Part shown: positions 23,191 to 49,180 of the stretch, piece by piece
Numbering within the stretch: the first letter of the stretch is position 1
Layout: the number at the start of each line of letters is the position of its first letter
NCBI GenBank assembly: GCA_006384855.1
Contig: VCJN01000981.1
Span: forward strand, 33,513 to 97,512
Origin: Tetraselmis striata
Lineage: Eukaryota; Chlorophyta; Chlorodendrophyceae; Chlorodendrales; Chlorodendraceae
Length of the DNA stretch: 64,000 nt
Direction: 5' to 3'
Made by a program: the position numbers and the translations under genes
The notes under the pieces: generated by a model
The model's input: the letters and a program-made list of their open reading frames with translations, nothing else
Database searches by the model: none
What the model was told of the DNA's origin: nothing

Positions 23191-23195
23191 GTGTG

Positions 23196-24851
23196 TTAAG
23201 AAAAAGGGTGTTACGGAGACATTTTTGCCCGGGCCCTCTCGGCCCTGCCGCCGACGTCGGCCAGCGAGGTGAAATCGCGTTTTCTCTTATGTAGGCGAAT
23301 TTCCGCGGCTCGCCATAATGTCTCCGTGGATTTCTCCGGTTTGCACGTCGAATGTACATTATCCCTCGTGTCGGTACTCGCTGTGGTACCGCTCCGTACC
23401 TTGTCGGAGGATGTCGGCCCCAAAATGGGGCCGTGGGGCTGGCATCCTCCGATGGGGGTGGGGCGGAGCCATTAAGAAAAAGGGTGTTACGGAGACATTT
23501 TTGCCCGGGCCCTCGCGGCCCTGCCGCCGACGTCGGCCCGCGAGGTGAAATCGCGTTTTCTCTTATGTAGGCGAATTTCCGCGGCTCGCCATAATGTCTC
23601 CGTGGATTTCTCCGGTTTGCACGTCGAATGTACATTATCCCTCGTGTCGGTACTCGCTGTGGTACCGCTCCGTACCTTGTCGGAGGATGTCGGCCCCAAA
23701 ATGGGGCCGTGGGGCTGGCATCCTCCGATGGGGGTGGGGCGGAGCCATTAAGAAAAAGGGTGTTACGGAGACATTTTTGCCCGGGCCCTCTCGGCCCTGC
23801 CGCCGACGTCGGCCAGCGAGGTGAAATCGCGTTTTCTCTTATGTAGGCGAATTTCCGCGGCTCGCCATAATGTCTCCGTGGATTTCTCCGGTTTGCACGT
23901 CGAATGTACATTATCCCTCGTGTCGGTACTCGCTGTGGTACCGCTCCGTACCTTGTCGGAGGATGTCGGCCCCAAAATGGGGCCGTGGGGCTGGCATCCT
24001 CCGATGGGGGTGGGGCGGAGCCATTAAGAAAAAGGGTGTTACGGAGACATTTTTGCCCGGGCCCTCGCGGCCCTGCCGCCGACGTCGGCCCGCGAGGTGA
24101 AATCGCGTTTTCTCTTATGTAGGCGAATTTCCGCGGCTCGCCATAATGTCTCCGTGGATTTCTCCGGTTTGCACGTCGAATGTACATTATCCCTCGTGTC
24201 GGTACTCGCTGTGGTACCGCTCCGTACCTTGTCGGAGGATGTCGGCCCCAAAATGGGGCCGTGGGGCTGGCATCCTCCGATGGGGGTGGGGCGGAGCCAT
24301 TAAGAAAAAGGGTGTTACGGAGACATTTTTGCCCGGGCCCTCTCGGCCCTGCCGCCGACGTCGGCCAGCGAGGTGAAATCGCGTTTTCTCTTATGTAGGC
24401 GAATTTCCGCGGCTCGCCATAATGTCTCCGTGGATTTCTCCGGTTTGCACGTCGAATGTACATTATCCCTCGTGTCGGTACTCGCTGTGGTACCGCTCCG
24501 TACCTTGTCGGAGGATGTCGGCCCCAAAATGGGGCCGTGGGGCTGGCATCCTCCGATGGGGGTGGGGCGGAACCATTAAGAAAAAGGGTGTTACGGAGAC
24601 ATTTTTGCCCGGGCCCTCGCGGCCCTGCCGCCGACGTCGGCCCGCGAGGTGAAATCGCGTTTTCCCTTATGTAGGCGATATTCCGCGGCTCGCCAAAATG
24701 TCTCCGTGGATTTCTCCGGTTTGCACGTCCACTGTACATTATCCCTCATGTTGGTACTCGCTGTGGTACCGCTCCGTACCGTGTCGGAGGATGTCGGCCC
24801 CAAAATGGGGCCGTGGGGCTGGCATCCTCCGATGGGGGTGGGGCGGAGCCA
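23196..24851 (+). repeat. Six tandem 276 bp units (552 bp higher-order period)
   Basis: Units start at 23,196, 23,472, 23,748, 24,024, 24,300 and 24,576 with ttaagaaaaagggtgttacg. Copies 1, 3 and 5 read ctctcggccc..ggccagcgagg; copies 2, 4 and 6 read ctcgcggccc..ggcccgcgagg, so the real period is a dimer of 552 bp repeated three times. Copy 6 has extra differences (ttcccttatgtaggcgatatt) shared with the single unit of the right end. The period is a multiple of three, which leaves a 532-codon frame open on the minus strand; this is not evidence of a gene. Confidence 0.92.
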
Positions 24852-24882
24852 TTACGAAAAAGGGTGTTACGGAGACATTTTT

Positions 24883-25330
24883 GGTCCGTCGGCACGGCGG
24901 GTTCCTCATCGGCGTCGGCACGGCGCGTTCCTCATCGGCGTCGGCGCGTCCCCTGTCGGCACGGCGCGTCCCCTGTCGGCACGGTGCGTCCCCGGGCGGT
25001 GCGTCGGCGCGTTCTTCATCGGCGTCCCCGGGCGTTGCGTCGGCGCGTCCCCTGTCGGCACGGTGCGTCCCCCATCGGCACGGCGCGTCCCCTGTCGGCA
25101 CGGCGGGTTCCTCATCGGCGTCGGCGCGTCCCCTGTGAGTTGGCACGGTGCGTCCCCTGTCGGTACGGCGCGTCCCCTGTCGGCACGGCGGGTTCCTCAT
25201 CGGCGTCGGCGCGTCCCCCATCGGCACGGCGCGTCCCCTGTCGGCACGGCGGGTTCCTCATCGGCGTCGGCGCGTCCCCTGTCGGCACGGCGCGTCCCGC
25301 ATCGGCACGGCGCGTCCCCTGTCGGGTGAC
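24883..25330 (+). repeat. GC-rich minisatellite inside the left terminal repeat
   Basis: Irregular tandem array of ~20 bp words, mainly 'gtcggcacggcgcgtcccct' and 'gttcctcatcggcgtcggc'. The inverse array is at 48,424-48,870 with only a few differences. Open frames on both strands are by-products of the repeat. Confidence 0.85.
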
Positions 25331-25462
25331 GCCCCGGAACGACGTCTATGAGCCCGTATGACGCCCCGGAACGACGCATCGCCCAATGGCGGCACGGCGC
25401 GTCCCATGCGCATGTCGGCACGGCATAGCCCCTGTCGGATGACACCCCGGAACGCTGAGGCA

Positions 25463-26719
25463 TCACACGAGCAGAACCAGCTCACTCAACCTAGGGGAGG
25501 ACCCCTTGTTAACGGGCATAAGGATCCGGTAGTTTGTATACGAACCGGGGCTGGTGACTCCCCCCTCAAAAAGGTAAGAGGCTTCAACCGCCAGGTCATC
25601 TACATCGAAATCGGTTTGAAAAAAGGTATTTGTCGCCTTGTCCACGGCGGGGATCATCGTGTACGTCATATCCGTGTACACGGCAAGGTCTGTCCAGTTT
25701 GTGCCATCGTTACTTCCCTGAAAATTGCAAAACCTGATTAGCCTGGTAGACCAGCTTTCAGTATTCCAAATCCTTATGGCGTTGACCGTGGCGGCGGTAG
25801 GAAGCCGAATGGCGAGGAAGTGAGGTGCTGACTCGGCAGGATCGGCAACCCACGCCTCAAACGAGGCACCGCTTATCCGGTCGAAGGCTCGCCAACCTTG
25901 ATAGTTCACAGCGGCACTGCTCGACTCGGTCACGGTGTATCCTTGGTCGGTGTATCCAGTAAGGGCTGGGACGGGGATGACCCGGAGAGTCTCGTAAAGA
26001 ACCAGCTCGACGATGCTAATGATCGCGCTCGAGTTCGCGCTCAGCGGCATACAAAATATTGAATAATTGGTTGCCTCTTGCGGGTTGGTAAAATATAGAT
26101 CGACGTAGTCGTTGCGTAGGCTAGCCGCACCGGGATTGGTTGTCCCCGCCCGGTAGTCGCTGGCCTGCAACGACTTGCTCGCGAGCACCGTACCATCCCG
26201 AGAGAAGGATATCAATCCGGGGAAGCTGTGCGGCAGGCCGTCCACAACCTTTGCGGCGGAATACAAACGAAATCCTACTATCCGTTTTGGCGAACTCAGC
26301 GTAAAATTGATCGTAACCGGAGGGGTGTTTGCCGGGCTCGCGAAAACATCTCCGATCCATCCGTATTGGCCGTCGAAGATATAGCTTGCGCTGAAATCCG
26401 GGGAAAACACGGGATTGCTGGATGTTACGGTTGCAAGCGCGCCATCGATTGCGACTACGGGGTTGGTGTTATGGCTGCCGAGGCTGATAATCCCGGATGT
26501 GTTCCCGGCGGTATCAATGAGCTCGATCCACAGCCAATACTGCGTCCCCGGTTGGAGGCCCGTTACGGTGACCTCCCCATTGTCGTAGTCGTAAATCACG
26601 TTGGGGGTGACGCTAGCCGTCGCGGAACCTAAAATCTGCTCGGTGACATCCGTAAACTCCCCGACGGGGATCGAATTGGTGGTGTTGGAATAGAGGCGGA
26701 TCTGACTGAACCCGCTCAT
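25463..26719 (-). CDS. Discoidin (F5/8C)-like and FN3-like spike protein, 418 aa
   Basis: Residues ~45-75 read VTVTGLQPGTQYWLWIEL followed by DTAGNTSG, the end of a fibronectin-III-like domain. The rest is beta-rich with two stretches resembling F5/8-type C (discoidin) carbohydrate-binding domains: about 85-240 (FDGQYGWIGDVFASP, RIVGFRLYSA) and about 255-410 (WRAFDRISGASFEAWV, AIRIWNTESWSTR, NFQGSNDGTNWTDL). Such proteins usually form surface spikes that bind host glycans. It is the last gene of the leftward block, ending 70 bp from the terminal repeat; 6 bp separate it from the gene upstream. The family assignment rests on motif impression. Confidence 0.6.
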   Translation of the reverse strand: MSGFSQIRLYSNTTNSIPVGEFTDVTEQILGSATASVTPNVIYDYDNGEVTVTGLQPGTQYWLWIELIDTAGNTSGIISLGSHNTNPVVAIDGALATVTSSNPVFSPDFSASYIFDGQYGWIGDVFASPANTPPVTINFTLSSPKRIVGFRLYSAAKVVDGLPHSFPGLISFSRDGTVLASKSLQASDYRAGTTNPGAASLRNDYVDLYFTNPQEATNYSIFCMPLSANSSAIISIVELVLYETLRVIPVPALTGYTDQGYTVTESSSAAVNYQGWRAFDRISGASFEAWVADPAESAPHFLAIRLPTAATVNAIRIWNTESWSTRLIRFCNFQGSNDGTNWTDLAVYTDMTYTMIPAVDKATNTFFQTDFDVDDLAVEASYLFEGGVTSPGSYTNYRILMPVNKGSSPRLSELVLLV

Positions 26720-26725
26720 TGTTTA

Positions 26726-27250
26726 CTATCCTACGCTAGAGGTGTTTTTTCGTTTGCTCGCACGCTCGACCACGCCCGGGATTGTTGGCGCGTTTTCCTC
26801 GATCCGATCCAGCTGGGCCGATATGTGCTTGATAAATTCCGCCTCGGACGCGAATGTCCCATCGTCCATTCGCTTCAGCATCGCCTCCGTGTTGATGTCC
26901 CGACTGATCTCGCCGTACCGGGCAGCATAATGGTTATGCTGCGCCGACTTTTCGGCCCAACCCAATGAGTTGGCCACGCCGACAATGCTACCGGCACAAA
27001 GGGACAGGCACCCGCTCACGACCGAGGCCGATTCGGCTTCCGTTGGTCCCGCGATACCGTAGGCGAGGTTGAAACAGCCGACCAGCAGACTTATCGAGAC
27101 ACTTACGACGGCTGTCGCATCAGCCAACCGCTTAAAGTACGAGTAGCTCCGGGAATGAAAGGTTTTTTGCACATTGGCGTTGTAACGCCATTTCGTAAGG
27201 AGCGCGTTATCCAGCTCGACGACCACCGACTCGAGACTATCGCGGGCCAT
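26726..27250 (-). CDS. Two-transmembrane SLATT-like protein, 174 aa
   Basis: An N-terminal helix (VELDNALLTKWRYNANVQKTF) is followed by two hydrophobic segments, about residues 45-70 (ATAVVSVSISLLVGCFNLAYG) split by a short loop from 78-100 (VVSGCLSLCAGSIVGVANSL). A charged helix follows (AEKSAQHNHYAARYGEISRD) and then a C-terminal helix. This order, with the HxxxAxxYxxI helix after the second membrane span, resembles the SLATT family, 2-TM proteins linked in bacteria to nucleotide-activated defence and also seen in large DNA viruses. An ordinary virion or host-membrane protein is the alternative. The neighbours are virion genes, 6-7 bp away on either side. Confidence 0.5.
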   Translation of the reverse strand: MARDSLESVVVELDNALLTKWRYNANVQKTFHSRSYSYFKRLADATAVVSVSISLLVGCFNLAYGIAGPTEAESASVVSGCLSLCAGSIVGVANSLGWAEKSAQHNHYAARYGEISRDINTEAMLKRMDDGTFASEAEFIKHISAQLDRIEENAPTIPGVVERASKRKNTSSVG

Positions 27251-27256
27251 TTACAC

Positions 27257-27487
27257 TTAAGGTGACAAAATTATATGCCCGACACCCTCCTCAGCCTCGT
27301 TGGCGGGTGGCATCCCTCGAAGAGCCACATCGATCTCCGATCGGGGGTCCGCGATGCGATTCCCGATGGAGTCGCGCCGCACGCTTGACGTGAAGCCGAG
27401 GAGGGTATTACCGCCATAATACGCGAACACCTTCGGCGCGTTGGTTTCCCGTTGGTTGAAGTTGATGCCCACGATCCCGCTAGACAT
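27257..27487 (-). CDS. Small unknown virion-cluster protein, 76 aa
   Basis: A short frame packed between its neighbours: its ATG abuts the stop of the upstream gene at 27,488 and its stop is 6 bp before the next ATG. Composition is globular (GIVGINFNQRETNAPKVFAY..). No family is recognised. Position suggests a minor structural or attachment-related product. Confidence 0.6.
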   Translation of the reverse strand: MSSGIVGINFNQRETNAPKVFAYYGGNTLLGFTSSVRRDSIGNRIADPRSEIDVALRGMPPANEAEEGVGHIILSP

Positions 27488-28327
27488 TTAGGTGCTGTCG
27501 GAGATATTAACCACAATCGTGAGCGAGGACTCCTCAGCGCCCGGCGTAGGTGTCACGGAGGCTGGGCCGTCTAGCTGCGGCGGGGTGGTGTCCGATACCG
27601 TGGCTAGAGTGGCGGGTGTCGACGCAACCACCGCCGACTCGTTGCCGACTTGGTCCCGGGCGAGCACCCACCCGTAGAAGGTGGTACCCGGGGCTAGGCC
27701 GGTGAAGGTGTGCGCCGTCGTTACCCCCGGGAGTGCGAGGCCGGCGTTTTTGATCTCGCTCGGGGTGGGGGGTGTCGTTACGGTGCTGCTCAGGAGGAGG
27801 TAGAGCGTGGCCACGGCGTCGTTGTCGCTGGCTGCTAGCGTCACGCTCACGGAGCTCGTGGGGGTGGGGCCGGTGGTCAGCGTGAAGGAGTCGACGGTCG
27901 GGGCCGTGAGGTCCGCCGTGGTCCCCGGGCCTAGGTAGCTGATGCTCTCGTTCCCCGAGGTGTCGACGAGACGCAGCCAGAAATACCTTGTTTGGTTGGG
28001 GGCGCCAACCGCGTAGTCATACGAGATCGTAGTCCCCCCGCTGATGCTAGATGTGACATCGGTCTCCGTGCGCCCGCCGATGTCGTTCGTGGTGTTCACC
28101 CCGAGGAAGGCCGAGGAGACGCCCATGTTTTCTTCTAGCGTCACGAAAAATGTTTCGGAGGTCTCGTCGGGATGAGCCGACAATGAATATGCGGATATGT
28201 ATGTTCTGACCGCCACATAAAGCTCGAGAAAGCACTCGCGGTACGAGCGTTCCAGCCTATTGCCCGGAAAGGGGCTTCGCCCCACAACACCCCCGGGGTT
28301 GAGGGAAGGGAACACGTGCCTCTTCAT
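27488..28327 (-). CDS. FN3-like beta-sandwich protein, 279 aa
   Basis: Contains three segments of the type found in the discoidin-like protein: APNQTRYFWLRLVDTSGNES (~115), a Thr/Ser-rich VDSFTLTTGPTPTSSVSVT linker (~145) and TFTGLAPGTTFYGWVLARD followed by QVGNES (~215), each the F-G end of a fibronectin-III-like fold. The Pro/Thr-rich tail ends SLTIVVNISDST. The start codon overlaps the stop of the gene upstream (ATGA, 28,324-28,327), typical of compact viral gene blocks. The likely role is a stalk or adhesin acting with the neighbouring spike. Confidence 0.6.
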   Translation of the reverse strand: MKRHVFPSLNPGGVVGRSPFPGNRLERSYRECFLELYVAVRTYISAYSLSAHPDETSETFFVTLEENMGVSSAFLGVNTTNDIGGRTETDVTSSISGGTTISYDYAVGAPNQTRYFWLRLVDTSGNESISYLGPGTTADLTAPTVDSFTLTTGPTPTSSVSVTLAASDNDAVATLYLLLSSTVTTPPTPSEIKNAGLALPGVTTAHTFTGLAPGTTFYGWVLARDQVGNESAVVASTPATLATVSDTTPPQLDGPASVTPTPGAEESSLTIVVNISDST

Positions 28328-29283
28328 ATTTTATAGAACGTCAAGCAAAAAATGAACTGGCTCGCGTTTGGGCGCATCGCGTAGGTCACGGCGTCCCTCA
28401 CCTCGATGTTGAGATAGGCTTGGTCGTCGAGTGGGAGCTGGCGCACCGGCACGCCTACCGTGTCCTCGCACACGGGCTTGACAGTGCGTTTCACGCCGAA
28501 AAAGGACCCACCCGCGCCGGGCAGGTAGGCGAGCACGCGCCGGCGGTTGTCCGTGTCGCTCTGGATGAGGTCGGTTGTGAGGAGCAGTCCCGCCGGCGCG
28601 GGGGTCGGAACATGGACGGGGCTGCAGTAGGACACCGCCATCTGCCACCCGCCCGGATCGCGGGCTAGCGCCGGCATGCGGAACGGTATCCCGTATGCGG
28701 CGGCGCCGACGATAACATCCGCCGCGCCGGTGCTGAACCACATGTTGTAGAACGCAGGAGAGACGGCGCGCTCCGGCTCCTCCTCCCAAAACACGAGCGA
28801 CATATCGAAGTCCTCGGCGAAAGTCGGCTCCCACTCGTACGCGCCGGTGCTCACCCGCGTCGGCGCCTCGCGAAAGCGAAACTCGAGCTCACTGAGCGTA
28901 GCAAGCTGGTCGCCCAAGCACATCCCGCCGCAAGCCGTTCGCTGCACGTACGGGGTGTCGGCGGTGGCGCCGTATAAGGCTTTTCCCGATGGGTCGCCTT
29001 GGAGGAGCCCCAACACCGCGTCGGAGTTCCTCTCGAAATTTTTGTATTGGTTGAGCTGCGTGAAGGAGGGGCATATGAGGAGGACGGCGAGAGGGTGGAA
29101 GTCGTTGGACGCGAAATCGCTTTCGAGGCCGCTTCCGCGCACCGGTGTGATCCACTCGAGGGCAAAACGCGTCGTTTGCCCCGCGAACACATTGAGGTGC
29201 TGCTCCTTAAGGGGGGAGGCGAAATTGTACGGTGCCCCGCGGGAGCGCTCCGCGGAGCTTACGACGACGCGGCGGATTTTCAT
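28324..29283 (-). CDS. MCP-adjacent virion protein, candidate minor capsid protein, 319 aa
   Basis: I place the start at the internal ATG 29,283 (MKIRRVVVSSAERS) because it is 17 bp after the capsid gene and preceded by an A/T-rich stretch; the longer open frame upstream would overlap the capsid gene and is Arg/Ser/Pro-rich. The protein is beta-rich (HLNVFAGQTTRFALEWI, AVLLICPSFTQLNQY, FDMSLVFWEEEPE, SQFIFCLTFYKI at the end). In polinton-like viruses the gene next to the major capsid gene commonly encodes a penton or other minor capsid protein, hence the suggestion. The gene at 32,823 is a competing penton candidate. Confidence 0.5.
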   Translation of the reverse strand: MKIRRVVVSSAERSRGAPYNFASPLKEQHLNVFAGQTTRFALEWITPVRGSGLESDFASNDFHPLAVLLICPSFTQLNQYKNFERNSDAVLGLLQGDPSGKALYGATADTPYVQRTACGGMCLGDQLATLSELEFRFREAPTRVSTGAYEWEPTFAEDFDMSLVFWEEEPERAVSPAFYNMWFSTGAADVIVGAAAYGIPFRMPALARDPGGWQMAVSYCSPVHVPTPAPAGLLLTTDLIQSDTDNRRRVLAYLPGAGGSFFGVKRTVKPVCEDTVGVPVRQLPLDDQAYLNIEVRDAVTYAMRPNASQFIFCLTFYKI

Positions 29284-29299
29284 TTTACACCTATGGGTG

Positions 29300-30541
29300 C
29301 TAAAAAACTGTCTGCGCCATGCCGCTGGGATCGACGAATAGCACCGCGTCCTGGTGGGTGAAGGTGTCGATGCGGAGCGCGCCGCCACTCGCAAGTGCCG
29401 CCGCGAACTCTGCCTTGAGGTGGATGGTGGCACTCGACACATCCACACCGGACTCGGACAGCATGGACTTATGCGACTGCGATTCCAAATCTTGTGCGAC
29501 CACATAGGTCCCCTCGGCGGCCCCCCACGTGCTGTTTTTGATGATCCCATGATGGTCAAGCGTGCCGTAGGCGTGAAACGCCTTCTGCAATTCCGCGAAT
29601 GCCTCCGCGTTGGTGTCGACGGGCTTTTGGGGGATAAGCTGGCCCGCGACATCATACTGCCATCGACCGCCGTCGCCGAACGGGTTGGTGCGATCCGTGA
29701 GGAAACCCACCGTGGCCGTCGAGGCGTTGCTCTGCTTGCGGAAGATCGTGAGCAGGGTCTTAAGCGAACGGTAGTTACCGCTAATGAGCGTGTTGATGAC
29801 CTTGGAGCCGGCCTCTACACTAGCGGCGTGGTTTCTGAAAGTGGTCATGGGGATGCGGTACCCGTCGGCGTTCGCCGCGGAGATGGCTTGTGCCGCGCCG
29901 CCGTCTAGCTTGACGATTTCCGCCACGTACTCCACGTCGGTGATCTCCCAATCGCGGCTCGCGGTGGACTTCTGAGCATCATCCTTGCCCGCAAGGGTGA
30001 TGTTCAACCTCATGTGGTTTCGCACCATGTCACCAATGGGCAAGTACTTGTGCTGCATGCTTCCTAGCACGCCCGACATGAGAGGAAGGCACACTGTGAT
30101 TGACGCGGAGCCGCCAATGGATGCGCCGACCCGAGCGGTAACGTTGCTCATGCCCTCGGTGACCGAGCCGCCGTACACCATCTGCGAGCCGTCGCCGCTA
30201 GAATCGAGGATCGTCTGATAAAGTGCCCCATACTGATCAATGTACTCGAGCACGTTGCTGCCGTACACACACTCGAGCAAGCGGATGACGGCATGCGCCG
30301 AGCCGTCGAGCACCATGGCATTGGCCGCCGTAGTATCCTTGTTGGTGAGCTTGAACTTTAGGTAGGACTGGCGGGTGTTAAGGAACTCGCCCTTGTTGCC
30401 GCATGGGATGACAAGCTGCACGGTATCGCCCGGGCTAAACGTCCGGCCGTTGAGCGGCGGGATGTTTGAGCGGTACTTATGCGCCGCCACCGCTCGCGGC
30501 TTCGGGGCAAACACGAGGGCTTCGCTCAGGCCTAGGGACAT
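29300..30541 (-). CDS. MCP: Major capsid protein (double jelly-roll), 413 aa
   Basis: Residues ~20-70 hold a basic stretch, PPLNGRTFSPGDTVQLVIP and then FLNTRQSYLKFKLTNKD, the first strands characteristic of the polinton/adintovirus-type major capsid. Further beta-strand blocks are LLECVYGSNVLEYIDQYGAL (~90), SITVCLPLMSGVLGS (~145), RLNITLAGKDDA (~180) and ITDVEYVAEIVKLD (~200). The C-terminal half (FRNHAASVEAGSKVINTLI on) would be the second jelly roll. Trimers of this fold make pseudo-hexagonal capsomers. At 413 residues it is at the short end for the family. An AT-rich motif (tataaaccc) precedes the ATG. The frame is intact. Confidence 0.82.
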   Translation of the reverse strand: MSLGLSEALVFAPKPRAVAAHKYRSNIPPLNGRTFSPGDTVQLVIPCGNKGEFLNTRQSYLKFKLTNKDTTAANAMVLDGSAHAVIRLLECVYGSNVLEYIDQYGALYQTILDSSGDGSQMVYGGSVTEGMSNVTARVGASIGGSASITVCLPLMSGVLGSMQHKYLPIGDMVRNHMRLNITLAGKDDAQKSTASRDWEITDVEYVAEIVKLDGGAAQAISAANADGYRIPMTTFRNHAASVEAGSKVINTLISGNYRSLKTLLTIFRKQSNASTATVGFLTDRTNPFGDGGRWQYDVAGQLIPQKPVDTNAEAFAELQKAFHAYGTLDHHGIIKNSTWGAAEGTYVVAQDLESQSHKSMLSESGVDVSSATIHLKAEFAAALASGGALRIDTFTHQDAVLFVDPSGMAQTVF

Positions 30542-30578
30542 GTTGGTTGGGGTTTATACCCTGTCCCCAGATATAAAT

Positions 30579-30923
30579 TTAGCGTTCAAGGCTCGAGCGG
30601 TTCCGCAAGCCGCCGTAGGCGTCTCGAACGGCCTTGGCGCTGCCCTTGACGTCCGTGTACCCCTGCTTGATCGCCCCGACATCCACTCCGCGGCCCGCGA
30701 TGGCGTCATGCGCCGCGCCGGCCAGTCCCGCGACCCCCAACGCTGCCCCGCCTACGGAGGCGCTAAGAGTGGCGGCCGGCGCGCCGAGGCCGGGGATGGT
30801 CGCGAGCACCGGGGACGCGCCGAGGAGAACCCCGCCCACCTTGCTCCCCACGGTGCGTATCCCCGCCGTTAGCTTCTCTCCGAACCCACGCAGCTTGCGC
30901 CCGAACTTGCCGAGGAAGCCCAT
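30579..30923 (-). CDS. Small amphipathic Gly/Ala-rich protein, pVI/pX-like, 114 aa
   Basis: The N-terminus MGFLGKFGRKLRGFGEKL is an amphipathic basic helix, followed by a Gly/Ala/Val-rich hydrophobic middle (VGGVLLGASPVLATIPGLG, SVGGAALGVAGLAGAA). Such small proteins beside the capsid gene of adeno-like and polinton-like viruses act in membrane disruption during entry (adenovirus pVI or pX type). It lies 37 bp upstream of the capsid gene. Identification rests on composition and position only. Confidence 0.55.
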   Translation of the reverse strand: MGFLGKFGRKLRGFGEKLTAGIRTVGSKVGGVLLGASPVLATIPGLGAPAATLSASVGGAALGVAGLAGAAHDAIAGRGVDVGAIKQGYTDVKGSAKAVRDAYGGLRNRSSLER

Positions 30924-30951
30924 GTTGATATTTTACTATGACGCTACAAAT

Positions 30952-32406: not shown

Positions 32407-32444
32407 TCTATTTTATTTTCTATCGCCTAGATAAAAATGGCGGT
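32407..32444. promoter_or_regulatory. Divergent AT-rich promoter region between the two viral gene blocks
   Basis: In GC-rich surroundings this 38 bp stretch (tattttattttctatcg..tagataaaaatgg) is AT-rich on both sides and separates the leftward block (ATG at 32,406) from the rightward block (ATG at 32,445). It probably holds back-to-back promoters. Confidence 0.45.
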
Positions 32445-32816: not shown

Positions 32817-32822
32817 ACGAAA

Positions 32823-34420: not shown

Positions 34421-34435
34421 CCCCCACTCGCCATG
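34421..34435 (-). promoter_or_regulatory. Copia polypurine tract
   Basis: Minus strand catggcgagtggggg directly before the 3' LTR, the plus-strand primer position. The same tract is next to the 3' LTRs at 52,525 and 63,767. Confidence 0.7.
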
Positions 34436-34441
34436 CAGTCA

Positions 34442-40528: not shown

Positions 40529-40533
40529 GTGTC
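40529..40533. repeat. Target-site duplication gtgtc (right)
   Basis: Identical to 33,925-33,929. Confidence 0.9.
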
Positions 40534-41948
40534 GGGCAACCTCGTCCCCCGCGACACCGCATTCGGGATACTGAGCGACCTCGGCGCGCCGGATGCCCCG
40601 TGGCGGCGCGTCTACGCCGACGGTCTGACCGTACCCAATGCCGAAACGTTGGTTTTCAAGGAATTTCAAGGCACGCCTGGCGAATATTCGTTAGCGGATG
40701 TCGTTGAGTACGCCGTGTCAATCGTGCCCCATCCGACAACGGTGTCGCTAGAGCGGATCGATGAGCACGTTATAAACGGGGGCATCACGGTGGACGGCGA
40801 CCTGCTCCCTCCCGCGCCGCTAAACAATTTGAGGGTCGGCGCGCCGACGTTGGAGTGGAACGAGGGGCATTTTCAAAATATGTACGCACGGAATCTGTAC
40901 TCCATCGATGGCGGCGGACAGCCTCGGCGCGTGCTGCTGGAGGGGGACGTGGTAGACCCCATCATGCCTTTGTGGGTCACCGATGCTCAGTCGGCGGTGA
41001 GCTTATCGGGCTTCAATCAGGATCTTGATCTCACCGGCGCGCAAGGGCCTCCGGGCCCGAAAGGTGACGTCGGCGCACCGGGGCCGGTGGGGCCGCAGGG
41101 CCCGCAAGGCGACGTCGGCCTGGCGGGGCAGCTCGGAAACACCGGCGCGACTGGGCCACAAGGGCCCGCGGGTCCGCCTGGCAACACCGGCGCGACTGGG
41201 CCACAAGGGCCCGCGGGTCCGCCTGGCAACACCGGCGCGACTGGGCCACAAGGCATCACCGGCGCGACTGGGCCACAAGGCATCACCGGCGCGACAGGGC
41301 CACAAGGCCCGAAAGGCGACGTCGGCCCGGCGGGGCCACAAGGCAACACCGGCGCGCCGGGGACTACGCTGTGGTCCGGCATCACCGACCCGCCGGATTG
41401 GGTGTCGAAAATCACCTACGAGGACCAACTCGCGTTCACCTACTACCAATACCCCGCGGACGCGCCGCCCGCGAATCTCGACATCACCACCTCGGACAGC
41501 ATCACCCCCACGAGCGACTCGACCTACAACCTAGGGCAGGCCGGAAAGCGGTGGCTTTTCGCGTATGTGCACCGCCCGCTGCAACGATGGCTTGGAGATC
41601 GGGACCACCACAAATTTTGGGCGGCTTGCCTTTAACGCCACGGAACAGAACCTAACAATAAACAGGCCCCTTCAAACCCTTCAAATCGGCACACTCGCCG
41701 CCCATGCGACGCTGACGTACGACCCTCAGCTAGCCAGCGTACAATCGGATGCCGAGCTGAGGGTGCCGATTCTCGTGGCCTCGACGGGGGCCTATATTGG
41801 AAGTCTAGAGACGCCGCTCCTCAATGTCACCGGCACCATGAGCCTCAACGGGAACCGCATCACCCAAGTCGGCGCGCCGAGCTCGGGGACCGATGTGGTC
41901 AACAAGTCGTATGTGGATGCGGCCATTTCCGCCGCGCTCGGCAGCTAG
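40534..41948 (+). pseudogene. Collagen-like viral fibre, 3' part (split and frameshifted)
   Basis: Continues the frame of 33,544-33,929. After ~165 residues of beta-type sequence comes a collagen-like stretch at about 41,035-41,365 made of Gly-X-Y triplets ([32 protein letters not shown]), encoded by 36-45 bp tandem repeats. Then follows a phage-tail-fibre-like C-terminus: SDSTYNLGQAGKRWLFAY and, in another frame from about 41,590, NDGLEIGTTTNFG and TGTMSLNGNRITQVGA..TDVVNKSYVDAAIS. The frame change at about 41,565-41,590 is a second lesion independent of the copia insertion. The intact protein would be a trimeric receptor-binding fibre. Confidence 0.78.
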
Positions 41949-42002
41949 TACATTCCGTCATGCCAGCATGACAAATGTAGTACCGTAGGGTATCACGCAA
42001 AC

Positions 42003-43049
42003 ATGCAAGCCTCTAGCCAAGCGATCCGCCTCGCCCGCGTGCGGGCTCACATCGAGGCCGCCGAGGACCCCGTCCGGGTTTTCGCCCACGAGTACGACCA
42101 GGGGGACGCCGACACCCAGGATGCCTTGTACGCCGTGTGGGAATCTAAGTTCATGAGCCGCGCCGAGGACCCCTCGCTTGCAGAGCGCCGCTTTGAGCAA
42201 TACCTCTCACTCGGCCGCCGCTCCAAGCCTCGCCGCACCGCGAAGGCGATACGGGATGCCGTGGGGCTGGCGAACGGCGCGCGGACGAAAATTCAGTTTT
42301 TGCTCGGAAAGACTGCGTCCTTTCGGATGCCGGAGTGGATGTGGGTCGTGGTGTACAAAACGCGGGTGCGTTTGGTGTCGCCCGCGGCTCAAGCGGCGGT
42401 CGCCGCCGACCCCGCCATGACCTTGCTCGCCCCCATGGTGTACATCGGGCATCGGCGCGACTCCGTGGCGGTGCGGGACCGCGTCCGCTTGTCCGACGCG
42501 CGGCGGCGCGCGCGGTCCGCCAACGGGCTGGTGGAGCTCACCCGTCTCCTTTTGGGAGCGGGGCTTAGCCACGGCGCGGGGAGCGATTTTGTGTTTGACG
42601 AGTTCTACCAAGAGGAGGTGCTAGGCCGCGTAGACCACGGGCATGGGCTGGAGGCGAGCAACGCCATCGACGCGAGCGTGCGCGAGGACCAAGTGCGTTT
42701 GGATGTGATCGAAGACTTCCTCAATGGGAACGGCCCGCGCCCATTCAACGCAAAAATCGATAACAGCCTGCTCGGGGTAACCAACGTGTCGGGGCTGCTC
42801 AGCGCGCACAACCGGCCGCTATCACAGCTCGATGTGCCGGCGCTGAGGCGGAAGCTTGCTGAGGCTCGCGCCGTGCTGGGCCGCAAACGTGGCGCCTACA
42901 CACGCAAATTCATGAGGGACGAGGTCGGCCGGCGCGTTCTGCCGGAGCCGGGGGTTACAGAGGACGGGTTAGGCCAAACGCGCGCGGCCCAGCTCACGCA
43001 GCCGCAGCGCGCCGCACGACTGCGGGCGATGAACGCAGCTGCCGTCTAG
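42003..43049 (+). CDS. Unknown viral protein, 348 aa
   Basis: Arg/Ala-rich, mostly helical (QAIRLARVRAHIEAAEDPVR, LSDARRRARSANGLVELTRL, LDVPALRRKLAEARAVLGRK). A central part includes FRMPEWMWVVVYKTRVRLVS. No catalytic motif of an integrase, protease or primase was found. It converges on the DNA polymerase gene, overlapping its 3' end by 4 bp. The frame is clean and uses the same GC-rich codons as its viral neighbours, so it is very probably real; it could be a replication or virion protein. Confidence 0.65.
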   Translation: MQASSQAIRLARVRAHIEAAEDPVRVFAHEYDQGDADTQDALYAVWESKFMSRAEDPSLAERRFEQYLSLGRRSKPRRTAKAIRDAVGLANGARTKIQFLLGKTASFRMPEWMWVVVYKTRVRLVSPAAQAAVAADPAMTLLAPMVYIGHRRDSVAVRDRVRLSDARRRARSANGLVELTRLLLGAGLSHGAGSDFVFDEFYQEEVLGRVDHGHGLEASNAIDASVREDQVRLDVIEDFLNGNGPRPFNAKIDNSLLGVTNVSGLLSAHNRPLSQLDVPALRRKLAEARAVLGRKRGAYTRKFMRDEVGRRVLPEPGVTEDGLGQTRAAQLTQPQRAARLRAMNAAAV

Positions 43050-46000
43050 CACGCGCCGGCTCGATGGCCCCCGGCGGCCATCGAGCCGGGGGCCATCGAG
43101 CCGGCATCTGCGTTGCGGAAGTGACCATGGGGCCGTGTGGTCACTCCGTCGGCGCAGATCCAGCGCTTGTCGTCGTAGGGGCTGAGGGCGGCCTTTGTGG
43201 CCTCCACGGTGCATAGGCGGTGCCCGCGGGATTGGATCATCCGCTGCGTCACCGTGCAAGCCGCGCCGCCGAGCGAAGCCTTGTAAGCGGGCATATCGAG
43301 CTTTTGCTTGGCCACCGCCTTCTTTATGCCCTTAGCGGTCCGCTTGGTGGTTATGACGTCGTCCGCAAGCGTGAAGCAATACATTTTGCTTTTCAGCCCC
43401 ACGAACTCGCCGATGGGCACGCCATCCGTCTCGTCCTTGAACTTGCCTACAACCTTCTTGTTGGCAGCGGAGTATAGCGGGTGCTCCTTGGGGTAGCCGC
43501 TCGTGTCGAAGTGCTCTGCCATCTGCCCCATGTCCGCGTACACGTCGTCCGTCTCGATGTGGTAGCATAGGGAGTCCGTATCGGTGAAGAGCAGCCGCGC
43601 CGCGGCGCCGTACCGGGCCTTGATCACATCGTAGTGAAAGCGAAACATGAGGAGCTTGGAAAGGTCGAGGATGGCCGCCCCCATGTAGATCGGCTTGTCG
43701 AGGACCACGGAGTCTTTCACGCGGTCCACGCCCGCGATGTTGCCTAGCACGTCGCACCGGCGAAAGCGGGGGTCGGCGGCCTTCTTTTGGAGTTGGGCGT
43801 CTCTCGTCACGAAGGTATAGTCGCTTTGGGCTCGGACATTCTGCATCGTTTTTCCAAAAACCGCGTTGTTGCACAATTTGAACAAATCCTTCTCGAAGTC
43901 GTTCGTGGAGGCGGCGCGTAGCTTGGTGTTCTTCTCGATCCACGGCGCGAGCACTTGCGCTTGCTGGCACACCATCGCCTTGTGCAGTTTGGTGACGCGT
44001 AGTCCCTTGCCCACGTAGAATTGGAGGAGGCGGGCGTCGCAGACGTAGTTGCGGCGCGGGCGGAAGTGAGAGACCAACTTCTCGTGCGGCGCGCAGCCAT
44101 CGGGCTTGAACGCCCGCGCCGTGGGGCTCGCGTCCTCCCACCCTAGCTTGAGCTTCTCCGGCGCGAGCGGTAGGTCGCTGTGGGCGTCGTGTAGATCGGC
44201 CGGGTACTCGAGGTCCACCTCGACGCTACAACCGCGCGCGCCGTCCCAATCACCCGCGAGTACCTCCTCGAGGGTCATCTGCGGTGCCCAAGTGAAGCCC
44301 GAGCATGGTAGGTATTGCATCATCGCCCACCCGTAGAGGTTGTTTGCATCTAGGTAGGTGATGAAGCTCGTGGGCTTGGTCCGATCGTAGTCGGGGCACA
44401 TCGGGTTGTTGGCCTTCGCGTGGCGGCGCGTGACCATGCTCACACCGCCGCGGATAGCCCGCTCGAAGTGGAGGTACTTGGAGATGTCGTCCGTGATGAG
44501 CTCCGGCGCGTCCTTCGTGGTCCTCATCGCGCCGTCCCAGCACATGCCGGGCAGCGTGACGTAGTTGCACGGATCGAGATTGTACTGCCTCATGCACGTG
44601 TCCCGAAATGACTCGAATACGTCGGCGAGGAGGAGCACATCGGCCTTGAGGTAGAGGTCGTGGTAGTCGCGGAAGGTGGTGCAGCCAAAGCGCCGCCACA
44701 CCCACTCCGCGTGCCGGTAGTCCGCGTCGCTGCACTCCTCGCCCGTGATGTCGTTGCGAAACTCGGCTTGAGAGGGGAGAGCGGGATGCTCTAGCTTGCT
44801 CGTTCCGTCGAACCACGCATAGGGGAACACCCCCTTGCGGCTAATCGCCTCCATCTCCTCGGCCGACAGCCCACGGGCTGCGAAAGCCCGGTGGAAGCGC
44901 GCCGCGTTCCTAGGGTCACCCCCGATGAGATTCTTCGAGAGCGCGCCGAGCCCCGCGGCCATGAAGCCCATCGTGTCGGTATACCGGAAACCACGGAACT
45001 CCGCTTCCTTGTACCGCTCGCTGTTGTCCGGGATCACCTCGAGCTTGGCCCCGTCGATGCTTTCAATTCGCCCGATGGCGTTGAGGATAAAGTGAATGTC
45101 GTAGCCCTTGCCGTTGTGGAAGTAGACGGGGACGCTGACCTTGCGCAGCTGCATCTTGAAGTTGCACAACGAGTGACACGCGCCGATGTACTTCCCCGTT
45201 TTGTGGTCGTGGTGCGCCACCTTGCGGGTGTTGATGCAGCGGCCAAACTCCTTCTTGCACTCGCAGCACGTGCTGGCACTTGCGTGAGCCTCCTTGTCGG
45301 CCCTCGTCATCACCATCGGTATGTTCCTCGTCGTCTCTCTCACGAGCTCGGGCCGCATGCTGTTGAGCTTCGCGACGAATTGGTCCGCCGCGTCCGCGCC
45401 GGTACGCTGAAACTCGTGGCTCGCGTAGCCAGTCACGCGGCTCTCCACACGAGCGCGGATGGAGATGCACCGGTGCTCCGACGTGCGCGCCGTCTTGCCC
45501 GACGGGCTCCTCTCATCGATCGGCGCGTTGATGGCCTCGCTGTCCGCGTATATGACGATGGGGACCGCCATGCTCTTGTGGAGAGCCTTGAATCCGCAGC
45601 TCGCCTTGTCGGGTGGGGGGAGGCTGGTCAACATGGGCTTGTGGGCGGCGCAATGGGTGTTGTGGGCGGCGCGAGTCTCGGGGGTCTTGAACCCGTGTAG
45701 GCAGCGCTCGCAGTACCACCGTTGGTCTCCGCGTGAGTTGAAGAGGCGATCCATGCTGGAGATGAGCACCCAATGCTTCTTGTAGAGGAGCATGTTGATC
45801 ACGCGCCGATCACCCTCCGCCGTTGTGATGCTTAACGGTGTCACGCGGTTCGTCTCCTCGTTAAGCATGAAGCAGTTGAGGGCGAGCTCCGGATTGTTGG
45901 CTTCGAAGCGGCGCACGTCCTTCACCGCCGTGGGGAACTTGACCCCGGTCCAATCGTACGCGTCGTATAGGCGTTGGTTCTTGCGGGCGACATAGTAGTC

Positions 46001-47011
46001 GATCCGGGTCGGTTTGGTCGCCGGGGGGTGGAGCGCCGCGATGATGCAGTACTTGAAGCACAAATCGTCGTCATTTTGGATGTTGATGAGTCCGCTCCTG
46101 GAGTTATCGTAGGGCTTTGGGAGGGGGACATGGCCCGCGCCGGTGCGCACGCGGAAGCCGTTGGCGTTCACTTGGAGCCCTCGTATACCCGCGAATGCCC
46201 ACCCGCTGCCGACGCCGATCGGGTACTTTTCGGGGTCTGCGGCCGCCTCGCCCACGGCACGCGCGAAATCCAAAATGTCCTCCTCGCCGTGGATGGTCCG
46301 GTTCATGTTGAGGTGCGCCAGGGTCTCCTCCGCACCCTTGGTGAAGGCCGCCTCGATGTTGACCCAAACTTTGTGGCTCCGGCGCTCTCCACCGTATAGC
46401 ACGCGATACAGCTCGGCGCGCACCGAGTTGGCCACTTGCGCAGCCGTATCCGCCGTGAACGCCGCGGCGCGCACGCTGGGGAAGCGCGGAGGGACAAAGC
46501 GGCGCACGAGCACCCCCCTTGCCCGCTGGGCGATCGATAGGTTGCGCGCCGCCCGCGCCGCCGCAATCCGTCTTCCAATCGCGGCCGCGGCGCGCCGGCG
46601 CGAGCGATCTTGGTCCGTGAGTACACGCCTCGGCTCGGGGTCCGCGATGTCGAAAGACAGTGGGAAGCCACGAGAAGCTGCGACGTTGGCCGCGAGCACG
46701 CGCCGGCGTTTTGCGGCTCGCTCGTCGGTCGTCAGCATCGCGCGGGATTTGCGACCCGAGGGGGTGAATCTCACGCCGGCGGCCTGAAGGGCGCGCCGAC
46801 GCTCGGCGGCCGCGGCTCTCCGCTGGAAATTCGCGCGCCGCAGCGCCGCCTCTCTGTTGCTCAGCGGGAGGGGTGCCATGCCCGCCGCTTGACGCAGTGT
46901 GGCGTCGCGGGCGGCCTCGACAAACTGGCTCCGCAGGAAAGCGGCCTCCTCCGCCGCAGACCTGCCGCGGGGCAGCGGGAGCACATCGATGATTGGGCGG
47001 CGCGAGCTCAT
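43046..47011 (-). CDS. polB: Protein-primed family B DNA polymerase, 1,321 aa
   Basis: Replicates the viral genome from the terminal repeats. The N-terminal ~180 residues are Arg/Ala-rich. A C2H2-like finger (YCERCLHGFKTPETRAAH, ~432-455) precedes the exonuclease. Exo I is VIYADSEA (~485), Exo II is FHNGKGYDIHF (~635), Exo III is YLKADVLLLADV (~787). Between Exo I and II sits a Cys/His cluster (CCECKKEFGRC..HHDHKTGKYIGACH, ~582-615) like endonuclease VII zinc sites. Polymerase motif A is YLDANNLYGWAM (~888), motif B KLCNNAVFGK (~1047), motif C FTDTDSLCYHI (~1143), and the KxKxY-like site is LKSKMYCF (~1200). All catalytic aspartates are present and the frame is intact. Most similar in layout to polinton/adintovirus pPolB. 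Confidence 0.9.
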   Translation of the reverse strand: MSSRRPIIDVLPLPRGRSAAEEAAFLRSQFVEAARDATLRQAAGMAPLPLSNREAALRRANFQRRAAAAERRRALQAAGVRFTPSGRKSRAMLTTDERAAKRRRVLAANVAASRGFPLSFDIADPEPRRVLTDQDRSRRRAAAAIGRRIAAARAARNLSIAQRARGVLVRRFVPPRFPSVRAAAFTADTAAQVANSVRAELYRVLYGGERRSHKVWVNIEAAFTKGAEETLAHLNMNRTIHGEEDILDFARAVGEAAADPEKYPIGVGSGWAFAGIRGLQVNANGFRVRTGAGHVPLPKPYDNSRSGLINIQNDDDLCFKYCIIAALHPPATKPTRIDYYVARKNQRLYDAYDWTGVKFPTAVKDVRRFEANNPELALNCFMLNEETNRVTPLSITTAEGDRRVINMLLYKKHWVLISSMDRLFNSRGDQRWYCERCLHGFKTPETRAAHNTHCAAHKPMLTSLPPPDKASCGFKALHKSMAVPIVIYADSEAINAPIDERSPSGKTARTSEHRCISIRARVESRVTGYASHEFQRTGADAADQFVAKLNSMRPELVRETTRNIPMVMTRADKEAHASASTCCECKKEFGRCINTRKVAHHDHKTGKYIGACHSLCNFKMQLRKVSVPVYFHNGKGYDIHFILNAIGRIESIDGAKLEVIPDNSERYKEAEFRGFRYTDTMGFMAAGLGALSKNLIGGDPRNAARFHRAFAARGLSAEEMEAISRKGVFPYAWFDGTSKLEHPALPSQAEFRNDITGEECSDADYRHAEWVWRRFGCTTFRDYHDLYLKADVLLLADVFESFRDTCMRQYNLDPCNYVTLPGMCWDGAMRTTKDAPELITDDISKYLHFERAIRGGVSMVTRRHAKANNPMCPDYDRTKPTSFITYLDANNLYGWAMMQYLPCSGFTWAPQMTLEEVLAGDWDGARGCSVEVDLEYPADLHDAHSDLPLAPEKLKLGWEDASPTARAFKPDGCAPHEKLVSHFRPRRNYVCDARLLQFYVGKGLRVTKLHKAMVCQQAQVLAPWIEKNTKLRAASTNDFEKDLFKLCNNAVFGKTMQNVRAQSDYTFVTRDAQLQKKAADPRFRRCDVLGNIAGVDRVKDSVVLDKPIYMGAAILDLSKLLMFRFHYDVIKARYGAAARLLFTDTDSLCYHIETDDVYADMGQMAEHFDTSGYPKEHPLYSAANKKVVGKFKDETDGVPIGEFVGLKSKMYCFTLADDVITTKRTAKGIKKAVAKQKLDMPAYKASLGGAACTVTQRMIQSRGHRLCTVEATKAALSPYDDKRWICADGVTTRPHGHFRNADAGSMAPGSMAAGGHRAGAC
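43055..43105. terminator. Perfect 21 bp inverted repeat at the convergence of two viral genes
   Basis: Arms at 43,055-43,075 and 43,085-43,105 (gccggctcgatggcccccggc and its exact complement) with a 9-base centre. It lies in the last codons of the polymerase gene just beyond the stop of the 348 aa gene. A transcription-end or mRNA-3'-end hairpin is the likeliest role. Confidence 0.55.
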
Positions 47012-47082
47012 CTTCGGATGATAGAATAAAAGTGAGAGAGATGGTGAGAGCGCCCCGGGGGTTTTTGTTTAGGCCCCGGAGA

Positions 47083-47373
47083 TTATTTTTCCCCGCTCAG
47101 ACGCACCTCGTTGGCTCGCTCCTCCTTGGCTCGCTCAAACCGCGACTCTTGCTCCGGGGTGTACACGTGCTTGCGAGGTCGGCCCACGGGCTTTACGTCC
47201 AGGCTGCGTGTGCGGTAGTACTTTTCCAACGCCCGGACCCTCTCGCTTTCCTGAAACGCGGGATCCTTCATCTTCTCGGCATATCGTTCGCGGGTCCTCT
47301 CGCGGTTTTTCTCGCGGTACTTCGCAGCATATGCGCGGTTGCGGGCTCGCTTCTCCTCGAGCGTGAGCGCCAT
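47083..47373 (-). CDS. Small basic AT-hook protein, 96 aa
   Basis: I start at 47,373 (MALTLEEKRARNRAYAAKY); an upstream extension would overlap the methyltransferase start. The protein is a single charged helix (REKNRERTRERYAEKMKDP) followed by an AT-hook-like GRPRKHVYTPE. Similar Arg/Glu-rich small proteins occur in large algal viruses and may bind DNA. It is divergent from the methyltransferase gene, with 63 bp between them, and lies 72 bp upstream of the polymerase gene in the same direction. Confidence 0.6.
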   Translation of the reverse strand: MALTLEEKRARNRAYAAKYREKNRERTRERYAEKMKDPAFQESERVRALEKYYRTRSLDVKPVGRPRKHVYTPEQESRFERAKEERANEVRLSGEK

Positions 47374-47436
47374 CGTGGTAGTGACTCGCGTTTGCAACCC
47401 CGCGGGGATTTTATTTCCTAAGGATAAACGCGCCAT

Positions 47437-48405
47437 ATGAAGTTTGTGGATTTGTTTTGCGGAATCGGGGGATGGAGCGAGGGGCTTCGCAGCCTCGGCA
47501 TGGAGCCCGTCTGCGGGGTGGATTGCCACGCTCCGTCGCTAGAGGCCTACGCTCGCAATCATCCCGGCGCGCAGACCGTGTGCGGTGATGTGCGTACAGC
47601 CGCTGTAGGCGTTGCCCTTGAGGAAAAGTTTCGCGACCGTATTGACCTCGTTGTCGGCGGGCCGCCGTGTGTGGGGCTGAGCAACGCGAACTTTCGACGA
47701 CGCGCCGCCGACAACGAGGTCAACACGCTAGCTTTCGATTTTGTACGCTTGGCGACGCGAATGCGTCCACGGTGGATTATCATGGAGCAGAGCGCCAACC
47801 TACACCTCCTGCGCGGCGCGGACGGCGAGACGATGTCGGCGCGCGTGCTGGCTCTGCTCGCGGAGTTGGGGTACCTCGGTCGCGCCGCTATCTTAGATGC
47901 CGCCGACTTCGGGGTCCCGCAGCACCGCAAGCGGACCATCATTTTCGCGCACCGAGGTGATGAGGCCCCGCAGCAATTCCCGCCCATCCCAACACACACC
48001 CAACCCGTGCGCGCCGGGGCTGTGCTCGCGCCGCCGTTTGCCGGACCTGTGCTCGCCGGCACGGTACTCGCCCGGGTGCGCGCCGCCGTTAACATGACCG
48101 CAGCCGAGGTGAGGCAACGCCGGTTTTACCCGCACAACGCCTATCGCGTTATGGACATGACCCGACCCTCGGCCACACTCAAAACGAACGTGCATGCCGC
48201 CGCGGGGCCGTACACACTGAGAGACGGCGAGGCGTTCCACACCATGACCCCGCAGGACATGCTGGCTCTACAGAGCTTCCCTCGGGCATACATTTTGCCC
48301 GCCGGTGTGACCAACGCTCGCGCCGGTGTCGGAAACGCCGTGCCACCCCTACTCGCCGCCGCCATTGGGCGATGCGTCGTTCCGGGGCGTCATACGGGCT
48401 CATAG
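47437..48405 (+). CDS. C5-cytosine DNA methyltransferase, 322 aa
   Basis: Transfers a methyl group from S-adenosylmethionine to C5 of cytosine. Motif I is FVDLFCGIGGWSEG (residues 3-16), motif IV VVGGPPCVGLSNANF with the catalytic Cys (~78), motif VI IIMEQSANL (~113; the usual ENV is EQS), motif VIII FGVPQHRKRTIIF (~158), motif IX RPSATLK (~243) and motif X AGVGNAVPPLLAAAIG (~298). The last 47 bp of the gene, with the stop, lie inside the right terminal repeat. No restriction endonuclease gene is adjacent, so it may modify the viral genome or counter host silencing. An AT-rich ttttatttcctaaggataaa stretch precedes the ATG. Confidence 0.9.
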   Translation: MKFVDLFCGIGGWSEGLRSLGMEPVCGVDCHAPSLEAYARNHPGAQTVCGDVRTAAVGVALEEKFRDRIDLVVGGPPCVGLSNANFRRRAADNEVNTLAFDFVRLATRMRPRWIIMEQSANLHLLRGADGETMSARVLALLAELGYLGRAAILDAADFGVPQHRKRTIIFAHRGDEAPQQFPPIPTHTQPVRAGAVLAPPFAGPVLAGTVLARVRAAVNMTAAEVRQRRFYPHNAYRVMDMTRPSATLKTNVHAAAGPYTLRDGEAFHTMTPQDMLALQSFPRAYILPAGVTNARAGVGNAVPPLLAAAIGRCVVPGRHTGS

Positions 48406-49180
48406 ACGTCGTTCCGGGGCGTCACCCGACAGGGGACGCGCCGTGCCGATGGGGGACGCGCCGTGCCGACAGGGGACGCGCCGACGCCGATGAGGAACCC
48501 GCCGTGCCGACAGGGGACGCGCCGTGCCGATGGGGGACGCGCCGACGCCGATGAGGAACCCGCCGTGCCGACAGGGGACGCGCCGTACCGACAGGGGACG
48601 CACCGTGCCGACTCACAGGGGACGCGCCGACGCCGATGAGGAACCCGCCGTGCCGACAGGGGACGCGCCGTGCCGATGGGGGACGCACCGTGCCGACAGG
48701 GGACGCGCCGACGCAACGCCCGGGGACGCCGATGAGGAACGCGCCGACGCACCGCCCGGGGACGCACCGTGCCGACAGGGGACGCGCCGTGCCGACAGGG
48801 GACGCGCCGACGCCGATGAGGAATGCGCCGTGCCGACGCCGATGAGGAACCCGCCGTGCCGACGGACCAAAAATGTCTCCGTAACACCCTTTTTCGTAAT
48901 GGCTCCGCCCCACCCCCATCGGAGGATGCCAGCCCCACGGCCCCATTTTGGGGCCGACATCCGCCGACACGGTACGGAGCGGTACCACAGCGAGTACCGA
49001 TATGAGGGATAATGTACATTCGACGTGCAAACCGGAGAAATCCACGGAGACATTTTGGCGAGCCGCGGAATATCGCCTACATAAGGGAAAACGCGATTTC
49101 ACCTCGCGGGCCGACGTCGGCGGCAGGGCCGCGAGGGCCCGGGCAAAAATGTCTCCGTAACACCCTTTTTCTTAACACAC
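48359..49180 (-). repeat. Right terminal inverted repeat, 0.82 kb
   Basis: Inverse of the left repeat from the inner border (gcccaatggcgg) to the tip (gtgtgttaag), with one 276 bp unit instead of six. That unit corresponds to left copy 6, the innermost. Confidence 0.9.
48424..48870 (-). repeat. GC-rich minisatellite in the right terminal repeat
   Basis: Inverse of 24,883-25,330, differing at few positions. Confidence 0.85.

What the first reader, a model, noticed from the sequence alone, without database searches (positions are those of the whole stretch)
23191..49180. Near-complete endogenous polinton-like virus with intact replication, packaging and capsid genes
Inverted terminal repeats, double-jelly-roll capsid, A32-type ATPase and protein-primed polymerase are all open; only the fibre is broken. 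No integrase or adenain-type protease was found, so it differs from classical Polintons and fits the polinton-like virus group. Gene content (discoidin spike, SLATT-like protein, C5-methyltransferase in the terminal repeat) looks distinctive.
Basis: partly seen in the sequence, partly recalled or inferred. Interest (0 to 1): 0.9.

Follow-up and report, generated by a model that had tools for sequence, protein, structure and literature searches.

The report
Endogenous alga virus with preferred insertion site
This stretch is a viral genome built into the DNA of a green alga very close to Tetraselmis striata, a kind of integrated virus already known, but comparing its relatives shows that, although no integration enzyme was recognised in it, they tend to insert at one short palindromic DNA site.

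Summary
Window 23191-49182 is a polinton-like virus (PLV) provirus of about 18 kb, enlarged by a 6.6-kb copia retroelement inside the fibre gene and five extra 276-bp terminal units. The host is Tetraselmis striata or a very near relative. Capsid (double jelly roll by model), A32-type ATPase and polinton-type PolB frames are open; no integrase or Ulp1/adenain protease was found. The cytosine methyltransferase lies beside, not in, the terminal repeat. Integrated Tetraselmis PLVs are already published, so the element is a member of a known kind.

What looks new is how it sits in the host. Of 36 distinct ends from three related lineages, 17 abut TAGC (0.2 expected; none of 119 other offsets exceeds 2). 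Three of four empty sites read GCGCTA. The implied target is the palindrome TAGC/GCTA. Junctions also show telomere-like filler (this copy), a templated inverted filler and a truncated end, which fits capture at a cut DNA end rather than concerted transposition. The best candidate for the cutter is the conserved 348-aa protein next to PolB; it resembles a GIY-YIG nuclease in motif order only, and profile and fold searches did not confirm that.

The parts
23191..49182 (.). Whole integrated PLV element with nested copia; termini GTGTG-TTAAG (left) and CTTAA-CACACAC (right)
23178..23190 (+). Left junction filler TGTTTAGGGTTTA, telomere-like, absent from the 11 empty sites fetched
49183..49209 (+). 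Right junction filler with TTTTAGGG/TTTTTAGGG, telomere-like
23196..24851 (+). Six tandem 276-bp terminal units, mostly alternating in two near-identical types; innermost unit most diverged
24576..25393 (+). Left ITR arm (818 bp); the terminal 32-bp motif recurs 276 bp inside with one difference
48358..49175 (-). Right ITR arm
25463..26719 (-). F5/8 type C (discoidin) domain protein, likely surface/spike
   Evidence: Pfam PF00754 E 1.4e-9; two stretches 45% and 65% identical in lineage 2
26726..27250 (-).
   Evidence: phrog_36926 E 1.4e-10, unknown function; 40% identical homologue in lineage 2
27488..28327 (-). fn3-like protein
   Evidence: PF00041 E 4.5e-4, below cut-off; conserved in lineages 2 and 3
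28324..29274 (-). Conserved protein next to MCP, candidate minor capsid protein (start inferred from homologues)
   Evidence: 44% and 24% identity in lineages 2 and 3
29300..30541 (-). Major capsid protein, double jelly roll
30952..31521 (-). Basic protein with a C-terminal SAP/LEM-like stretch (label by eye)
   Evidence: weak PHROG hits; no Pfam hit
31505..32233 (-). A32-type packaging ATPase
   Evidence: PF04665 E 1.7e-15
32823..33671 (+). Candidate penton/spike base
   Evidence: weak DUF5901; 41% identical in lineage 3 loci
33544..33929 (+). N-terminal part of the fibre gene, cut by copia
33930..40528 (-). Nested copia retroelement, identical 491-bp LTRs, target duplication GTGTC; pol at 34442-39103
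40529..41948 (+). Collagen-like and C-terminal parts of the fibre, in more than one frame
   Evidence: PF01391 E 2e-17
42003..43049 (+). Conserved 348-aa protein; candidate target-cutting nuclease (GIY-YIG-like motif order, unconfirmed)
   Evidence: against: 90, 100, 101
43046..47011 (-). Polinton/adintovirus-type family B DNA polymerase
47437..48405 (+). C5 cytosine DNA methyltransferase
   Evidence: PF00145 E 2.9e-45; DNMT1 and HhaI matches

Best explanation
The feature is a provirus of a polinton-like virus of a Tetraselmis alga, one of several related copies. Shown: capsid, ATPase and polymerase frames open; no recognised integrase; strong preference of this element and two related lineages for TAGC/GCTA; irregular fillers at some junctions. 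Inferred: a sequence-specific endonuclease, most likely the conserved 348-aa protein beside PolB, cuts the palindrome (probably leaving 2-nt CG 3' ends, which would give the CG seen on both sides of clean copies), and the linear viral DNA with GTGTG-type ends is joined into the break by host end-joining. When repair is delayed, ends are trimmed, templated inserts are copied, or telomerase adds TTTAGGG-like repeats, as in the window copy. The fibre was later broken by a very young copia insertion, so this copy is probably defective on its own.
Confidence: 0.5

Rival explanations
1. Ordinary integrated PLV whose insertion uses an integrase supplied in trans by another PLV family in the same genome; the TAGC preference belongs to that enzyme.
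For: The genome holds several other MCP families, and no integrase was found here.
Against: No uniform target duplication of the 4-7 bp kind reported for rve PLVs; irregular fillers at junctions; the same target in three lineages, members of which share the 348-aa protein. No integrase domain in the seven lineage-3 ORFs scanned, but these cover only about 8 kb.
Confidence: 0.2
2. PolB, its presumed terminal protein, or the ITR ends themselves choose the site by annealing or microhomology with GCG/GTG, without a dedicated cutter.
For: Termini start G(TG)n, so GC-G junctions offer 1-2 bp of microhomology.
Against: Lineage 2b ends in GAGAGAG, not GTGTG, yet shows TAGC at 3 of 7 ends; 1-2 bp of homology cannot select TAGC over other NNGC sites.
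Confidence: 0.15
3. The methyltransferase and an unseen partner form a restriction-modification pair that cuts the host at a GCGC-type site.
For: C5 methyltransferase with HhaI among its matches; target core is GCGC; RGCGCY is depleted in the element (27 seen, 46.8 expected, sd 6.7) but not in the rest of the window (69 seen, 67.8 expected), and so is GGCGCC (8 seen, 19.5 expected, sd 4.9).
Against: The target itself, AGCGCT, is not clearly avoided (3 seen, 5.0 expected, sd 2.4) and GCGC only mildly (221 seen, 246.6 expected, sd 16.4). No methyltransferase detected in 18 loci of lineages 2 and 3, among them four lineage-2 loci that span from PolB to the ITR.
Confidence: 0.08
4. TAGC is part of the viral end, not host sequence, so there is no target preference.
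For: TAGC precedes the terminus in three lineages.
Against: Three empty sites already contain GCGCTA, and several intact ends lack TA (C1230, C510, C2337, C1290).
Confidence: 0.03

Closest known systems
Tetraselmis PLVs: Tetraselmis viridis virus S1 / TsV-N1 and integrated relatives in Tetraselmis genomes
   Same: Same host genus; double-jelly-roll MCP, with TVS1 as third structural match (22% identity); integrated forms reported (PMC10120064 passages, citing Chase et al. 2022, which is not held and was not read).
   Different: TsV-N1 is about 31 kb (passage) against about 18 kb here. Whether published copies include this lineage or note its target site could not be checked.
Polintons / adintoviruses
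   Same: Polymerase about 35-40% identical over the polymerase region to named animal homologues, including one adintovirus at 37%; A32-type ATPase, double-jelly-roll MCP, ITRs.
   Different: No rve integrase and no Ulp1/adenain protease found; no uniform 5-6 bp target duplication.
Cryptophyte PLVs (PMC12220804)
   Same: Large families of copies with long ITRs, collagen-type fibre domains, SLATT and stand-alone GIY-YIG genes (section 10 and passages).
   Different: Many of those carry rve or tyrosine recombinase integrases; the section and passages seen mention no preferred palindrome and no telomere-like filler (partial symmetry of some duplications is mentioned).
GIY-YIG endonucleases (I-TevI, Slx1, Eco29kI type; names recalled except Slx1)
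   Same: Order of motifs and secondary structure in the 348-aa protein.
   Different: No profile or Foldseek support.

Membership tests
Polinton-like viruses | Double-jelly-roll MCP | tested here: met
Polinton-like viruses | A32/FtsK-type packaging ATPase | tested here: met
[quoted passage not shown]
   two candidates (28324-29274, 32823-33671); no fold predicted
Polinton-like viruses | Terminal inverted repeats | tested here: met
Polinton-like viruses | MCP falls in a PLV clade | tested here: inconclusive
   TVS1 is third by structure; no tree built
Polintons (Mavericks) | rve integrase | tested here: not met
   only in the nested copia pol, 21 element ORFs scanned
Polintons (Mavericks) | Ulp1/adenain maturation protease | tested here: not met
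   no hit in the 21 element ORFs scanned
Polintons (Mavericks) | Protein-primed PolB | tested here: met
   polinton/adintovirus-type homologues; protein priming itself inferred
GIY-YIG endonucleases | Family profile match | tested here: inconclusive
   none found; weak Slx1-Slx4 match
GIY-YIG endonucleases | Tyr/YIG/Arg/Glu/Asn motif in b-b-a-a-b-a order | tested here: inconclusive
   present by eye in alignment and model; family pattern recalled
GIY-YIG endonucleases | DNA cleavage | not testable with these tools
   needs a bench assay

The most novel reading that the evidence does not exclude
A lineage of polinton-like viruses has replaced integrases by a 'cut and be captured' route: a virus-encoded endonuclease of a divergent or new family cuts host DNA at the palindrome TAGC/GCTA, and host end-joining, sometimes with telomerase, inserts the linear viral genome into the break.
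Probability: 0.35. Interest if true: 0.78.

Novelty: new variant of a known kind. Interest (0 to 1): 0.55.

Why it matters
Many PLVs lack a detectable integrase yet occur integrated, and how they enter genomes is open. A shared, sequence-specific target with break-repair scars in three lineages makes that question testable with one protein and one oligonucleotide. It would also link viral endogenisation to double-strand-break repair and telomerase in a green alga.

Tried and rejected
Restriction-modification coupling was tested: AGCGCT is not clearly avoided, but RGCGCY is depleted in the element, and the methyltransferase is missing from the lineage-2 loci that span PolB to ITR, so it was lowered, not excluded. 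A palindromic host site as sole cause at C1455 was rejected: its left side proved to be an inverted filler. Relatives among IMG/VR contigs: 130 pattern matches, none confirmed (records near the window's genome may be left out). Phage records: no match. Solved structures by sequence: none for the MCP or 348-aa profiles, and only two chance-level rows for PolB (E 0.34 and 0.81). GIY-YIG by Pfam, NCBIfam, PHROGs, Foldseek and hhalign: not confirmed; the MCP-profile control in hhalign gave a similar non-match. TTTAGGGx4 has 3 matches in the genome (control 1), TTTTAGGGx3 has 31 (control 0), so 'telomere-like' rests on motif resemblance; the host telomere sequence was not established. TAGCGCTA itself has 2938 sites in the genome (reversed control 3012), so it is not rare. 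Ends dropped before the count of 36: internal units of the window (L009, L027, L028), L014 (replaced by the window itself), the second end in L015, loci without a recognised terminus (L075, L077, L079, L080), secondary ITR matches in loci already used (L081-L084), and 8 of 44 as duplicates by flank.
Full report
Location and host. The window is part of contig C776 of an unnamed 224-Mb assembly. The best protein matches for capsid, 348-aa protein and polymerase carry the label jgi/Tetstr1 at 98, 96 and 99% identity, which I read (recalled) as Tetraselmis striata; the organism is that alga or a very near relative.

The element. By comparison with other copies the element runs from 23191 to 49182. 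The inner ITR arms are 818 bp with 9 mismatches. The left end carries six copies of a 276-bp unit, mostly alternating in two near-identical types, and the right end one. The first 32 bp of the terminus recur 276 bp inside with one difference, so slippage or recombination between the two could create the array (inference). Without the 6.6-kb copia element and the five extra units the element is about 18 kb. The copia has identical 491-bp LTRs and a GTGTC duplication and lies in the fibre gene, so the break is recent; the fibre remains also lie in more than one frame.

Genes. MCP (413 aa) models as a double jelly roll, pTM 0.84. Its nearest structural matches are giant-virus-type capsids, Tetraselmis viridis virus S1 at 22% identity, mavirus, Sputnik and PRD1. 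The ATPase is A32-type. PolB is open over 1321 aa and belongs with polinton and adintovirus polymerases: 4617 homologues among 7994 candidates scored, of which 120 were listed. F5/8-C, fn3-like, collagen-fibre and C5-methyltransferase genes accompany them. In the 21 element ORFs scanned (10, 7 of 8, 4 new ones of 6) the only integrase domain is in the copia pol, and no Ulp1 or adenain protease was found. The gaps between the genes named are at most about 600 bp, too small for a typical integrase (inference).

Copies. The same genome gives 103 MCP matches: a group at 95-99% identity, one near 71%, one near 60% and one near 40%, with some in between. The terminal unit gives 55 matches, PolB 45 and the 348-aa protein 50. 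These counts are lower bounds by the tool's own note. I call the window's group W, the 71% group lineage 2 (2a: C520, C436; 2b: C1772, C527, C1052, C2605/C531, C655, C2669) and the 40% group lineage 3.

Target site. I collected 44 ends, 36 with distinct flanks. Directly outside the terminus 17 of 36 read TAGC, against 0.20 expected from the same flanks (P 3e-29): W 11 of 26, 2a 3 of 3, 2b 3 of 7. At the 119 neighbouring offsets the count never exceeds 2. GC directly outside the terminus holds for 22 of 36. Lineages W/2a and 2b have different terminal sequences (GTGTG... and GAGAG...), so the shared TAGC is unlikely to be shared viral sequence. TAGCGCTA itself is not rare in the genome: 2938 sites, reversed control 3012.

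Empty sites. The window copy sits in a gypsy-type pol gene. Of 39 other matches of its flank 11 were fetched, and all 11 read CAGCGCTACATCGG there (one has CGG and ten have CGA in front). The C1230 copy sits in a copia whose uninterrupted copy in this window reads GTGCGCGCTATC. The C1455 copy sits in a host repeat; the three copies fetched read GTTGCGCTA, the closest one GTTGCGCTAATAG. These three sites contain GCGCTA. A fourth site (C1303/C1435, truncated viral end) reads CAGCGATAT in the window's copia and does not. Clean copies keep CG on both sides, which fits a 2-bp duplication or, equally, no duplication with a cut between GC and GC; the data do not separate these fully.

Junction scars. 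The window copy has TGTTTAGGGTTTA on the left and GTCGGTTTTAGGGTTTTTAGGGTAGGG on the right, absent from the 11 empty sites fetched. The orientation fits addition to the 3' end of the host on the left and of the virus on the right (inference). C1455 has an inverted copy of about 32 bp of its own right flank on the left. C2605 and C531, which share one flank, carry a stretch resembling an inverted copy of their own terminus outside the right end. C1303/C1435 lost the first bases of the terminus. Such scars are typical of end-joining, not of concerted integrase action (established knowledge).

Literature. Integrated Tetraselmis PLVs and TsV-N1 are published (passages of PMC10120064, PMC7805220 and PMC4642659). 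For PMC12220804 I read section 10 and saw passages; PMC11071308 and PMC11633385 were seen as passages. Chase et al. 2022 was not held. Searches for polinton with telomere (15 of 24 papers listed), polinton-like with GIY-YIG and target site, T. striata virus with target site, and telomere repeats with break and alga virus listed no paper whose title or abstract start reports this target or scar pattern. Absence from print is therefore not established.

Verdict. A confirmed PLV provirus of a known kind; the new content is a sequence-specific insertion pattern without a recognised integrase, with a testable candidate enzyme.

Noticed in passing
L059 (contig C206:4000-13900); also contigs C266 and C335: Tandem arrays of a 6,988-bp unit on C206 (C266 spacing about 6,961) made of the fibre, PolB and 348-aa gene segment of this PLV, with the 348-aa frame open and PolB broken; C335 holds related pieces.
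   Followed up: partly
L061 (contig C1496:62500-69100): A deletion derivative of about 5.9 kb that keeps both ITRs and TAGC at both ends; no MCP, ATPase or PolB frame of 120 aa or more was listed. Resembles a non-autonomous element.
   Followed up: partly
Contig C2337, ITR hits at 99253 and 118263: Two left ends and two MCPs each 19,010 bp apart, with the same flank at both left ends, suggesting a head-to-tail duplication of PLV plus flank, or an assembly effect.
   Followed up: no
L069, L070 and lineage-2b ITRs: As in the window element, the terminal motif of the ITR is repeated inside the ITR (about 440 bp in), so a double terminus may be a wider feature of these PLVs.
   Followed up: partly
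window 2940-6018, 50137-53013, 58130-63907: Further copies or fragments of the copia family that interrupts the fibre, 80-99% alike in the repeat families listed, most of them 95% or more.
   Followed up: no
31 matches on 25 contigs of the genome: Short TTTTAGGG repeats (control 0), possibly telomeric or scars of break repair by telomerase.
   Followed up: no
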